This document shows positions 6,868-62,004 of a stretch of DNA of 64,000 bases, piece after piece. Source of the DNA: a virus. The stretch lies in the IMG/VR virus record IMGVR_UViG_3300046714_000544, positions 1 to 64,000 of that record, one strand, 5' to 3'. Both the position numbers and the translations under genes were made by a program. The number at the start of each line of letters is the position of its first letter. Position 1 is the stretch's first letter. The notes under the pieces were generated by a model, which worked only from the letters and a program-made list of their open reading frames with translations, did not search any database and was not told the DNA's origin.

Positions 6868-7809
6868 ATGGCCAGCGATAGGACTTTCGAGTCGTGTTGG
6901 AAAGAGTTGCTGGTTTACTACCCGGAGTTGCCTCCTCCGCTAGCGCAGAGGTGGGTGAATACGTCTTACCACGAGGCTCTGGATAACCTGGAGTGGAGTG
7001 GGAGTAGGGGGTATGGGGAGTTTAGGCTGCCGGCGCAGACCCTCACAGGTCTGGCATCAGCAACCCTCAATAGTGCATCGGTGGTTGGAAGTGGAACGGC
7101 GTGGACATCGGCCCTTGTTGGTCAGCAGTTTTACCAGAATGGCACCGCACCCTTCTACACCATCATCTCTGTGGAGAGCCCGACGGCGTTGACTCTTGAT
7201 AGGGTGTGGGGTATGGCCTCCACGGTGAGTGCGGCGTATGTAATTCAGTTGATCTACGTGGTGTGCCCGGCGGATTTTACCCACTTCGACAGTGTGGTGG
7301 ATATACAGAATCGGTGGCGGATTCATACATTCCTACCGCAGGAGTGGCTTGATAGGGTGGATGCGGCGAGGGTTTATGCTGGGGCGCCTGTTTGGGTCAT
7401 GGCAGCTGCGACACCTTCACCAGTGACGGCGACACTCGACAGACCGCGGTTCGAGGTATGGCCTAGGGGGACAGGGGATGTGACATATCCATTCACCTAC
7501 AGCAAGCAGCTACCGGCGATGAGTGCGGCGACGGACCGGCCGATTTACCCGATTAGGGGTGATATGGTCGTTGAGGGAGCGTTGGCACGACTGGCCCTGT
7601 ACAAGGGTACGAAGGATGCGCCGAACCCGTACGCGGATGGGAATAACTATAAGATCCACCGAGCGCAGTTTATCGCCAGGGTGGAGCAGATGAAGAACAT
7701 CGACGAGGGTGTGAGGCAGACGCGGATTTGGTACGAGGATGATAGGAATGGTTGGCCATGGGCGCCGATCGATAGCAAGTTTATACAGACGCATCTGTTT
7801 CCCCTATAA
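6868..7809 (+). CDS. Head-tail connector / adaptor-like protein 1
   Basis: A 313-residue protein with a helical N-terminus (residues 1-45), a beta-rich insert (about 60-130) and a C-terminal helical region (about 225-300). This layout matches phage adaptor proteins of the gp6/gp4 type that sit below the portal. It shares overall layout with the products at 8314 and 10305. Assignment is structural inference. Confidence 0.55.
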   Translation: MASDRTFESCWKELLVYYPELPPPLAQRWVNTSYHEALDNLEWSGSRGYGEFRLPAQTLTGLASATLNSASVVGSGTAWTSALVGQQFYQNGTAPFYTIISVESPTALTLDRVWGMASTVSAAYVIQLIYVVCPADFTHFDSVVDIQNRWRIHTFLPQEWLDRVDAARVYAGAPVWVMAAATPSPVTATLDRPRFEVWPRGTGDVTYPFTYSKQLPAMSAATDRPIYPIRGDMVVEGALARLALYKGTKDAPNPYADGNNYKIHRAQFIARVEQMKNIDEGVRQTRIWYEDDRNGWPWAPIDSKFIQTHLFPL

Positions 7810-36375: not shown

Positions 36376-36638
36376 TTCGCACTCTTCAACTGCACAACCA
36401 GACCGTAGTTAAGTGTATGTGGTTTAGTCCAACTAGGAGGATAAATCCTAGGATGAGCTTCCTTAGTGAAATAGTCTCCATCGCACACCCCCACACAATT
36501 CCCTTTTGGATCTACTTGAGTAGGGCCGCAGCCTTCGCACAAAACCTCAGCAGCGAGGCCCTTGTTCCATTCTTCAACAGTTGTTAATCCCACGAAATCG
36601 TCAAACTCCGGGATACATTGCTTGCAATGGTCGCTCAA
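36372..36638 (-). CDS. 88-residue zinc protein
   Basis: CKQC at residues 5-8, CEGCG at 34-38, then two further Cys (48, 52): enough for one or two zinc sites. Overlaps the RtcB-like gene by 4 bases. Confidence 0.6.
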   Translation of the reverse strand: MSDHCKQCIPEFDDFVGLTTVEEWNKGLAAEVLCEGCGPTQVDPKGNCVGVCDGDYFTKEAHPRIYPPSWTKPHTLNYGLVVQLKSAK

Positions 36639-37810
36639 CCCTTCACACTCAGCAGCGGCCGCAGCTTCGCCACCACAGACACCAAATCCATCTGCTGCCT
36701 CATGACCACATCAATCGACTTAAAGGCCATAGGATGCTCACCCAGCATTCTCTCATCCTTCCTACAATCAACCCCATCTGTTGCCTTCCTGAAGTCGTCG
36801 AGGGAGTAAAACTTCGCCGCCCCCTCCCTACTGATCCGCCGTCCAACTCCTGCCGCCGCACTGTGAAACGCCCCCGTTGCCCCCTTACCACAAACAATAT
36901 AAGTGGGCTTCCCCAAACCGCCGGGGATGACTCCAAGATCTCCCTTCCCTGCACGAATGGCCCCCCTTCGGAGAACGAAGACATGCTCGTTAAAGTGCCG
37001 CTCCCAGGAGACGAAGTTGTGAGGACTGTCCACAACCGTCCGCCACTTCGGCTGGAAAGGGAAGAAGGACTCGACGATGTCCTTCACAACCTCCATGATG
37101 TTCTCCCGGTTCCAGGCTGCGTAGTCCTGGGTCCACTGGACGGCATCACGGCACGCCTGCATCTCACTGCTCCCCGAGAGGAAGGAGGCAAATTCGGGCG
37201 GGATGTGCTCGTTGTGTGGGAGCAACCGCGCCGCTGCAGTGTGGAAGGTGGAAAGAGTCTTGCCGATGTCCCGGCTCCCTGCCTGGACAACCACCCAGAG
37301 GTTCTGTCCCTCATCCTCGCATAGTTCGATGAAGTGGCCGCCGGCACCGAGGGTGCCAACCTGCCGCTGGGCACTGGCCAGGACCCGGATATCCGCCCCC
37401 TTGAGGTTGACAAAGAGGCCCCACTTCGGCCATCGACCGAGGCGGTCGATTGGCTCCGTGAATTGGAGCGTCCCCACCGGGATGCTGCTCTCGATGGCCG
37501 TCCTTAGTTCACTCACCAGGGCACTGGTGAGATCGGTGCTCTTCATCCCCAGGGTCGCGGCACGGACCCCGCACCCGATGTCATGCCCTAGGAGAGAGGG
37601 GATCAACGTCCGCCTCGTCGCCACCACCGTCCCGACCGGGCACCCAATCCCCTCCGTCGCATTTGGGAGGACGACGAGATGTTGGTAGATGTCAGGGGCG
37701 ACGGAGAGTTCCTTCAGCCGCCCCCAAACTGCCTTCCCCACCTCAATCTGCGTCGCCCAATGGTGGATCGGTACTTCCCGTCCTGTCCCGTAAGTCACCG
37801 CACTCATCAT
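36635..37810 (-). CDS. rtcB-like: RtcB-family RNA ligase homologue with altered active site
   Basis: 391 residues from ATGATG at 37810 (AGGGAG upstream). RtcB landmarks: DIGCG (metal Asp/Cys kept), GAGGHFIE, QAGSRDIGK, HNFVSWERHF, and GVGRRISREGA near the nucleotide-binding end; C-terminus LRPLLSVKG. In RtcB the guanylated His stands in an HGAGR motif; here the aligned segment is AGVGR with Ala before the Gly. The GGNHF Asn is Gly and the HSGSR His is Gln. The fold is certain; ligase activity is doubtful. The neighbouring cREC gene supports RNA-end metabolism. Confidence 0.8.
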   Translation of the reverse strand: MMSAVTYGTGREVPIHHWATQIEVGKAVWGRLKELSVAPDIYQHLVVLPNATEGIGCPVGTVVATRRTLIPSLLGHDIGCGVRAATLGMKSTDLTSALVSELRTAIESSIPVGTLQFTEPIDRLGRWPKWGLFVNLKGADIRVLASAQRQVGTLGAGGHFIELCEDEGQNLWVVVQAGSRDIGKTLSTFHTAAARLLPHNEHIPPEFASFLSGSSEMQACRDAVQWTQDYAAWNRENIMEVVKDIVESFFPFQPKWRTVVDSPHNFVSWERHFNEHVFVLRRGAIRAGKGDLGVIPGGLGKPTYIVCGKGATGAFHSAAAGVGRRISREGAAKFYSLDDFRKATDGVDCRKDERMLGEHPMAFKSIDVVMRQQMDLVSVVAKLRPLLSVKG

Positions 37811-37821
37811 CCGACTCCCTT

Positions 37822-37947
37822 TTAGGGTTGTTCTTTTAACTCTTTCAACAAAACCACAAGGTGGCGCTTGCATAGAAACAATGCGTCATTCAACGACACC
37901 ACACACCAGTTGTAACAACTGTCGCATCTCTGCATTCCGCGTTCCAT
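37822..37947 (-). CDS. 41-residue Cys-rich protein
   Basis: CDSCYNWC at residues 8-15, one Cys at 26, then a Leu/Lys-rich helix. It ends 12 bases before the RtcB-like start. An internal ATG (residue 5) has a better ribosome site. Probable zinc-binding. Confidence 0.5.
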   Translation of the reverse strand: MERGMQRCDSCYNWCVVSLNDALFLCKRHLVVLLKELKEQP

Positions 37948-59698: not shown

Positions 59699-59802
59699 AA
59701 TGTGTACCCCCTAAGACAACCTGTGTGGAACCGTCTCCGGTAGCGGACGGAGAAAACAATCGCCCACGGCTTGTGGCACCTGTGACAAAAACGCGGCGCT
59801 AG
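59647..59802 (-). CDS. Possible zinc protein without standard start
   Basis: The frame contains FCHRCHKPWAIVFSVR and FHTGCLRGY, a plausible ribbon. No ATG/GTG/TTG is available; CTA at 59802 overlaps the upstream TAG as CTAG. It runs 52 bases into the next gene. Kept as a low-confidence entry. Confidence 0.25.
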   Translation of the reverse strand, partial: LAPRFCHRCHKPWAIVFSVRYRRRFHTGCLRGYTLWRQTSSTFRSSRFRNG

Positions 59803-60053
59803 ATCTCGTCGAACGGGTAGACATCCTTCACCCTCTCGTTGAAGAAGGCGGACGGGTCCTCCGTACTGGCCAGACCAATCGCAACATCCTCCGGCACATC
59901 GTAGTAGCAATACGACCTCCCGGAACGGAAGTCGATGTGAAGGTTGCCCTTCACCCAACCACTGGCGTCGTCACCCTCGGCGATGAAGAAGACCGTGTGC
60001 AGGTTGCTACTGTTGAGGGTGACTGGCCCTAGTTCGAAAATCTCCGCGGTCAT
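59799..60053 (-). CDS. KTSC-domain protein
   Basis: 84 residues. LHIDFRSGRSYCYYDVPEDV and PSAFFNERVKDVYP match the KTSC domain (small beta domain of phage and bacterial proteins, function unclear). ATGA overlap with the next gene upstream. Confidence 0.6.
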   Translation of the reverse strand: MTAEIFELGPVTLNSSNLHTVFFIAEGDDASGWVKGNLHIDFRSGRSYCYYDVPEDVAIGLASTEDPSAFFNERVKDVYPFDEI

Positions 60054-60172: not shown

Positions 60173-60492
60173 CACTTCACCTCATCAACGCACAGAGTTG
60201 TGTTCTGGTCTGGTCTCAGGGACTGCTTGGCATCGTCCAATTCCCAAAGCGGCTGGTTACGACACGTATAGCAGAGCGCGTTTGATGTTGCAGCCGTATC
60301 CTTGCCCGCGCAACCCTTGCACGATACTCGCCCATCCTTCAGCCTCTCCACCTCCGCCTGTAGTTCGGCGTTCTTGGCCAGCAACTCCGGGATGACGACA
60401 GAGGGGCAGGTGCTACCACAGGTAGCGTGCGGGTGACGTTGCTTGCATCCCTCCGCCGCCTCCCTCGCCCTCTCCGCTAGCGGCCTCATCAC
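60172..60492 (-). CDS. 106-residue Cys-rich coiled-coil protein
   Basis: Cys at about 16, 25 and 29, then a short coiled coil (ELLAKNAELQAEVERLKDG) and CKGC...CYTC (about 58-76), a zinc ribbon. Function unknown. Confidence 0.55.
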   Translation of the reverse strand: MMRPLAERAREAAEGCKQRHPHATCGSTCPSVVIPELLAKNAELQAEVERLKDGRVSCKGCAGKDTAATSNALCYTCRNQPLWELDDAKQSLRPDQNTTLCVDEVK

Positions 60493-60866
60493 TCAATGCT
60501 CCCGAAGATGGCGATCCTCCACGCCTCCTCGACGGTCAACCGCACCTGGGCCTCAGTGTCGCCGATGATGACGGTGGCATCTTGGCCGGGGATGAGGAAT
60601 TCCTCTCCGAGTCTGCGGGCGAGGAAGGCTTGGATCTCCCAAAAAGCGATTGGTTCGATGGTGAAGAGGTGGAGGGCGCTGGCGAGGGCCTCCTCAGCAT
60701 CACATAATCGACATTTCTGCCCAGGTAGGGTGATCGGATCGCACCACAGGGGCCTGTTGTTCTCCGAGAGCCAGGAGGGCGGGAGGATCCGCGCGGCTTC
60801 CAGCAACATCTCCAACCCACCGCCTATGCGGCTGTCGTTGGCTGGTCCGACGAAATGTCGCGCCAT
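60489..60866 (-). CDS. 125-residue hypothetical protein
   Basis: Alpha/beta with CRLC near 52 and an extended C-terminal half (ATVIIGDTEAQVRLTVEEA). It is the first minus-strand gene after the structured non-coding region. Confidence 0.5.
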   Translation of the reverse strand: MARHFVGPANDSRIGGGLEMLLEAARILPPSWLSENNRPLWCDPITLPGQKCRLCDAEEALASALHLFTIEPIAFWEIQAFLARRLGEEFLIPGQDATVIIGDTEAQVRLTVEEAWRIAIFGSIE

Positions 60867-60879
60867 CTGTTTCTCCTAG

Positions 60880-61839
60880 AGAAAGGCGTGCGGCCACCTG
60901 GCTGCCACCCCAGGATCACAGGCTCCCATAGCCTGGGTAATCGGCGCTTATACTATGGCCACGTTGGTTTGAAAGCAAGGAACAGGGTTACCCTCTTCGC
61001 TGCTTTCATATGAGAGGAGAGGGGAAGGCCGGTTCGCAAGGCCGGCATCCGAGCAGAGGGCTAAATGGGGTTTGCCCATGGCCATCCTCGTGCATTGAGG
61101 CAAATATGCTACTTCCCCCCGGACGACCCTAACGAACGTCGGAAAGAGGGCTGAGAGGATGATCCTCAGCGTTTAACACCTGGAGCATGCATCCAGTCGG
61201 GGCTATCTCCCCAACCTCTTCCCTTTACTACCTTAATCCACTATTGTGCACCACGCGACACCTCCGGGACAGAAATCGGCCAATCGTCGGGCTTCGTTTA
61301 ACCCACACCGAGTGGGCCTATACAGCCGCACGAGTTATAAGCTCGTCGCTGTTAGCTGGAGTCTTTACACCCGCGGCTCCCGGTGCCAGTGTGGGTACGC
61401 GCCTGGCTCGCGGTTAGCTTCTCGACACCCACTGTGAGCTAACAGACCTCCTGTTTCGCTTAGGTAGAACGCGCTAACGACCCCAGACAGACTAGGGAGG
61501 TTTAACAAGCCTTCCCCTTCTTCACACGAAGATCACTCCGTGTTACGCTAGCACTTCGAAGATCACCTGCGGGCGATCCGTGCCCCATCCGCCGGTCTGT
61601 CAGCGGCGTAGAGTTGTTTTACCTCGGAAGAACGAGACAGCCGCAGTCACGACCTACGCGGCGCGCGCCTGATCAGCGTAGTGGGCTAAGCACCATGCCA
61701 ATCCGGGACCTCCCCGCCTCGCGGTTAGGGGATGTCTCTCAAAATGGGGGCACGCCTGAAGGCAGTCCGGGCTCATCCTTGCAGATGAAGCAATCGGCCT
61801 CTCGCCTTCTATCGTAGGACGTGCGGCTGCGCTATAGCT
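60880..61839 (-). ncRNA. Candidate large structured non-coding RNA (about 0.96 kb)
   Basis: No frame gives a credible protein across about 960 bp, unlike every other region of this length. Perfect or near-perfect stems are frequent: GCCGG/CCGGC (61028-61046), CTGAG..CTCAG (61151-61169), CTGGA/TCCAG (61180-61196), GGGG/CCCC (61199-61212), CCCAC/GTGGG (61302-61316), ACGAG/CTCGT inside ACAGC/GCTGT (61322-61352), GTTAGCT/AGCTAAC (61413-61443), AACAG/CTGTT (61441-61455), ATCGGCC/GGCCGAT (61793-61857). GAAGATCAC repeats near 61529 and 61557. Minus strand is assumed from the genes around it; class unknown. Confidence 0.5.
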
Positions 61840-62004
61840 TCAGCCCCGTAGGCCGATGAGTTCGTTGTGCTCCTTGACCAAAAGGCGCGCAACATCTTCG
61901 GAGAGTCCCCCTACAACGATGCCGTGGGATTTCTGGCCATAGATCCAGTAGCCGTAGCCCAAAGCCTCACAGTACCACATTTCCCGGGCCAAGGATTCAC
62001 TCAT
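61840..62004 (-). CDS. 54-residue hypothetical protein
   Basis: ATG at 62004 with GGAGAAG upstream (frame to 62073 is noise). Reads MSESLAREMWYCEALGYGYW, then a helix. Its 3' end overlaps the ATCGGCC/GGCCGAT stem of the structured region. Function unknown. Confidence 0.5.
   Translation of the reverse strand: MSESLAREMWYCEALGYGYWIYGQKSHGIVVGGLSEDVARLLVKEHNELIGLRG

What the first reader, a model, noticed from the sequence alone, without database searches (positions are those of the whole stretch)
60880..61839. About 960 bp without genes, packed with perfect stems: possible new large phage RNA
This is the only stretch of its size in the early region without an acceptable frame. At least nine perfect stems of 4-7 bp or longer were found by eye, some nested, and several short motifs repeat. 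Very large structured RNAs of phages (GOLLD and ROOL type) are of this size and lie in such positions. No tRNA, tmRNA, RNase P, rRNA or self-splicing intron signature could be matched. Region boundaries and strand are inferred.
Basis: partly seen in the sequence, partly recalled or inferred. Interest (0 to 1): 0.75.

Follow-up and report, generated by a model that had tools for sequence, protein, structure and literature searches.

The report
Gene-free gap, possible orphan phage RNA
A 973-base stretch with no genes really does interrupt a run of early genes in this uncultured phage and may make a large RNA of unknown function, but its hairpins are no more than chance would give and no relative was found anywhere to test it.

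Summary
The gene-free stretch is real: 60867-61839 (973 bp) lies between two co-directional leftward genes. It has no coding signal in any frame, no protein or pseudogene similarity, no tRNA and no Rfam match. If transcribed, it is on the minus strand. "Packed with perfect stems" does not survive testing: stem counts are 0-1.8 sd above shuffles, and folding energy (z about -1.6 to -2.7) lies in or just below the range of coding windows of the same genome. It is not GOLLD or ROOL, and no tRNA is near. No homologue was found in phage or plasmid records, in 51 related virus records, or by three motif scans of IMG/VR, so covariation cannot be tested. Controls limit what this means: two transcribed phage K lncRNAs also lack Rfam matches, and one folds no better than this region. 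A large non-coding RNA remains the best single explanation (about 0.45), because phage operons rarely carry 1 kb of nothing and ICP1 has an abundant RNA in just such a gap. The neighbouring divergent junction (63516-65003, mostly beyond the window) is more remarkable: ten sigma54-type promoter sites in 470 bp, and a 500-nt segment with folding z about -7.7.

The parts
60867..61839 (-). Non-coding segment; candidate large RNA, read 61839 to 60867
   Evidence: no frame with coding signal; flanking genes both on the minus strand. Transcription is inferred.
61638..61829 (-). Predicted 5' domain closed by CAGCCGC/GCGGCTG and CCTACG/CGTAGG
   Evidence: pair probabilities 0.94-0.99; single sequence, no covariation
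61711..61732 (-). Hairpin TCCCC-TAA-CC-GCGA-GG-C-GGGGA; its core CTAACCGCGAG recurs at 61407-61417 and nowhere else in the record
61524..61606 (-). Three consecutive predicted hairpins (61589-61606, 61560-61579, 61524-61543)
   Evidence: p 0.96-0.99
61021..61517 (-). Central domain closed by the predicted long-range helix GGGGAAGGCT/GGCCTTCCCC
   Evidence: p 0.98; pair I3
61330..61346 (-). 5-bp stem with 7-nt loop shaped like a tRNA anticodon arm (ACGAG CTTATAA CTCGT)
   Evidence: Sequence; ARAGORN and Rfam find no tRNA, so possibly chance
61141..61223 (-). Predicted compact four-way junction: 9-bp stem enclosing three hairpins
   Evidence: z -3.4, 1 of 200 shuffles; picked after the fact
60970..61008 (-). 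Predicted 3' hairpin TGAAAGCAG...TTGCTTTCA
60489..60866 (-). 125-aa gene just downstream, AGGAG before its ATG
   Evidence: no family match
61840..62004 (-). 54-aa gene just upstream, GGAG before its ATG
   Evidence: no family match

Best explanation
A lineage-specific large non-coding RNA of up to about 0.97 kb, encoded on the minus strand inside a leftward operon that most likely starts at the sigma54-type promoters near 64.0-64.4 kb. It would be co-transcribed with the short genes upstream, processed out of that transcript, and act as a structured RNA during infection, as has been seen for ORF-less gaps in other phages. Shown: position, strand context and absence of coding. Inferred: transcription, processing, structure and function.
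For: No coding signal in six frames; longest stretch free of ORFs >=80 aa in the record. Both flanks are co-directional genes with ribosome-binding sites, so the gap is internal to an operon and is not a promoter junction. No family or read-through protein similarity. No terminator-like site on the minus strand within it. Unpaired bases are purine-rich on the minus strand (z +1.9) and the reverse on the plus strand. Mild excess of repeated short words. 250 bases have a pair probability above 0.95, against 129 +/- 59 in shuffles. Precedents: ICP1's most abundant transcript lies in a roughly 1-kb ORF-less space without tRNAs (PMC7567579); phage K has two lncRNAs in intergenic gaps (PMC9241854).
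Against: Folding energy and stem counts are close to chance and to coding windows. Several coding windows have as many well-defined pairs. No homologue anywhere searched, and the closest relative whose early region is held, G001, has no such gap. No promoter or terminator of its own was recognised.
Confidence: 0.45

Rival explanations
1. Decayed or foreign DNA: the remains of a gene or an inserted fragment that has lost its frame and is neutral cargo.
For: Absent from the best-covered relative; stem density near chance; longest frame slightly shorter than in random sequence.
Against: No similarity to any protein family in read-through translations; apparent weak hits to relatives are matched by shuffled controls. 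Tetranucleotide composition is native (rank 43 of 141 windows). Phages usually delete 1 kb of useless DNA quickly (general knowledge).
Confidence: 0.27
2. A DNA site: replication origin, packaging or regulatory region rather than an RNA gene.
For: Non-coding, with a few short repeats.
Against: No AT-rich stretch (GC 0.58 vs 0.57 genome), no iteron array, no promoter cluster. The neighbouring junction 63516-65003 is a much better candidate for control or origin functions.
Confidence: 0.12
3. Several very small genes of under 80 codons, missed by all tests.
For: Frames of 40-76 aa exist, and the neighbouring real genes are only 40-59 aa.
Against: No frame in the gap reached the gene-finder's threshold; codon scores are flat and negative in all frames.
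Confidence: 0.1
4. Assembly error or chimaeric join in a metagenomic contig.
For: Single metagenomic record without close relatives.
Against: Clean gene boundaries with ribosome-binding sites on both sides; native composition.
Confidence: 0.06

Closest known systems
Phage ICP1 abundant ~800-nt RNA in the ORF-less space gp139-gp140 (PMC7567579)
   Same: About 1 kb without frames between genes of a lytic phage; no tRNAs in the genome; no known family
   Different: ICP1's RNA was seen by RNA-seq; no expression data here; no sequence relation tested or claimed
GOLLD RNA (Rfam RF02032)
   Same: Size above 800 nt; phage-borne
   Different: No match even at E 10; no tRNA nearby; no evidence of elaborate conserved structure
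ROOL RNA (Rfam RF03087)
   Same: Phage-borne large non-coding segment
   Different: No match even at E 10; no tRNA island; longer
Phage K lnc001 and lnc002 (PMC9241854)
   Same: Intergenic phage lncRNAs without an Rfam family; lnc001 folds no better than this region
   Different: Beside tRNA genes, transcribed, and lnc002 folds far better than chance (z -5.65)

Membership tests
GOLLD (RF02032) | Match to the covariance model | tested here: not met
   no candidate at E<=10 in the whole record
GOLLD (RF02032) | Location near tRNA genes (frequent, not universal) | tested here: not met
   no tRNA in the window; none in L003
GOLLD (RF02032) | Length above about 800 nt, phage or prophage origin | tested here: met
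   973 bp in a virus record with portal, capsid and terminase genes
ROOL (RF03087) | Match to the covariance model | tested here: not met
   (the controls were silent too, so that call is weak alone)
Known structured RNAs in general (Rfam 15) | Any family at gathering score | tested here: not met
   relaxed search gave only chance-level hits
Large structured phage RNA (as a kind) | Non-coding segment of several hundred nt in a gene-dense phage genome | tested here: met
Large structured phage RNA (as a kind) | Structure beyond chance | tested here: inconclusive
   z -1.6 to -2.7; control lnc001 scores the same, lnc002 and junction 64441-64940 score far better
Large structured phage RNA (as a kind) | Covariation in homologues | not testable with these tools
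   No homologue found
Large structured phage RNA (as a kind) | Transcription as a discrete RNA | not testable with these tools
   No RNA data

The most novel reading that the evidence does not exclude
The segment encodes a new family of large phage RNA, with a closed 5' domain, a central domain closed by a 10-bp long-range helix and a compact tRNA-like four-way junction, expressed from a sigma54-driven phage operon and found so far in a single lineage.
Probability: 0.25. Interest if true: 0.75.

Novelty: new member of a known kind. Interest (0 to 1): 0.35.

Why it matters
Large phage RNAs such as GOLLD and ROOL have striking structures and unknown jobs, and transcriptomes show more that belong to no family. 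A further independent example in an uncultured phage without tRNAs would help separate what these RNAs have in common. At present it is one orphan sequence, so it matters mainly as a candidate to follow when relatives appear.

Tried and rejected
Rfam at gathering and relaxed thresholds. Whole-record searches with the GOLLD and ROOL models. Distant BLASTN in phages and plasmids. Flanking proteins as anchors in IMG/VR: no relative. Capsid and terminase anchors gave one good relative, G001; a portal alignment gave 80 loci. The region searched in 51 of these records gave only 14-26-nt chance matches; sensitive BLASTN and nhmmer over 1.9 Mb of relatives gave nothing. A covariance model of the four-way junction over 1.5 Mb gave only itself and chance. 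Motif scans of IMG/VR: CTAACCGCGAGSCRGG 15 hits, two independent ones in hairpins next to poly-T stretches (L144; L151, which is the same as L156) with weak further likeness; judged a shared stable hairpin, not homology of the whole. CGAGCTTATAACTCG 7 hits and GGTGTTAAACGCTGAG 20 hits, nearly all inside genes. Genome collection: no close relative, no useful host clue. Six-frame read-through for a dead gene: chance only, by shuffled controls. The tRNA-anticodon-arm shape at 61330-61346: no tRNA by ARAGORN or Rfam, so not claimed.

Full report
Setting. The window is bases 1-64000 of a 69,168-base virus record. Portal, major head protein and other structural genes read rightward from the left end. 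Most genes from 22 to 63.5 kb read leftward. The terminase and its neighbours read rightward from 65 kb. The closest named phages are the Tunturiibacter phages Tunturi_1 and Tunturi_2, at about 26% portal identity. The best relative with a long record is IMGVR_UViG_3300037264_004382 (G001), with 62% capsid identity.

The observation. A simple codon-based gene finder, the ORF lists and a codon score all agree that 60867-61839 holds no gene on either strand. The genes on either side are small but have ribosome-binding sites, and both read leftward, so the gap is inside an operon. The longest reading frame inside it, 76 codons, is somewhat shorter than random sequence would give. Translations read through stops match no Pfam or PHROG family and nothing in phage records. 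Apparent weak hits to relatives are reached by shuffled sequence. Composition is native.

Stems and folding. Over the whole region the minus strand folds at z -2.7, -1.6 or -1.9 depending on the shuffle set and the exact ends, and the plus strand at about the same. Thirteen other windows of the same length on the same strand range from +0.75 to -1.8. In 200- and 500-base pieces there is no consistent signal. The minus-strand ensemble contains well-defined helices, among them a closed 192-nt 5' domain, a 10-bp long-range helix and a compact four-way junction. Several coding windows contain as many well-defined pairs. Purine-rich loops on the minus strand (z +1.9) and a mild excess of short repeats are hints only.

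Calibration. Two transcribed lncRNAs of phage K (coordinates from PMC9241854) also have no Rfam family apart from neighbouring tRNAs. One folds at z -1.97, like this region, and the other at z -5.65. So neither the missing Rfam match nor the weak folding score excludes an RNA gene; they simply fail to support one.

Relatives. No DNA relative was found in phage or plasmid records, in 51 portal-related IMG/VR records searched whole, in 1.9 Mb of related loci with sensitive BLASTN and nhmmer, with a covariance model of the four-way junction, or by three motif scans of IMG/VR. G001, whose early region is held, has no such gap next to its junction gene. The segment is therefore an orphan and covariation cannot be assessed.

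Mechanism. The most likely reading is a large RNA made as part of the leftward transcript and processed from it. Evidence is positional, with precedent from ICP1, whose most abundant transcript lies in a similar ORF-less gap in a phage without tRNAs (PMC7567579). Transcription, processing and function are inferred. Non-functional DNA is the main rival.

Known families. GOLLD and ROOL are excluded as families by covariance models and by the absence of tRNAs. It may still work like one, but nothing here shows that.

The neighbour. The divergent junction 63516-65003 is non-coding too. It holds ten sites with 11-13 of the 13 defined positions of the sigma54 consensus YTGGCACG-N4-TTGCW, on both strands, all between 63910 and 64379; nowhere else in the record does a site reach 12 (3.25 sites at >=11 expected per shuffled genome). 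Relatives G013, G016 and G001 carry such sites in the same kind of junction gap. Next to it, 64441-64940 folds at z -7.65 on the plus strand, 37% more stable than shuffles, with purine-rich loops (z +4.0), no Rfam match and no BLASTN match in phages. It contains copies of AAGTTGTTGA in both orientations and could be a structured leader RNA or an origin. If a large structured RNA exists in this phage, this segment is the better-supported candidate.

Noticed in passing
63910-64016 in the window, continuing to 64379 of the record (L003 4910-5379): Ten sigma54-type (-24/-12) promoter sites on both strands in 470 bp between the leftward and rightward gene blocks; none scoring as high elsewhere in the 69-kb record. 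Similar sites lie in the junction gaps of relatives G013, G016 and G001. It suggests a phage whose main control region depends on the host's sigma54.
   Followed up: partly
L003 5441-5940 (record 64441-64940, beyond the window): A 500-nt non-coding segment with exceptional folding (z about -7.7 on the plus strand), a long closing helix CTTGATCTGT/ACAGATCAAG, purine-rich loops and no Rfam match; structured RNA or replication origin.
   Followed up: partly
L003 5930-5961 (record 64930-64961): Good sigma70-type promoter TTGATT-18-TATAAT on the plus strand just before the rightward genes (read by eye).
   Followed up: no
36635-37873 (minus): Phage-encoded RtcB-type RNA ligase (Pfam PF01139).
   Followed up: no
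59799-60053 (minus): Small KTSC-domain protein (Pfam PF13619).
   Followed up: no
L144 about 6970-7045; L151 about 2300-2400; L156 about 1065-1160: In two unrelated phage contigs a hairpin with the core CCCTAACCGCGAGGCGGG sits inside a longer stem followed by a run of T, with a similar second part (CCTGT...CGTGG) between them: perhaps a small shared RNA element at terminators.
   Followed up: partly
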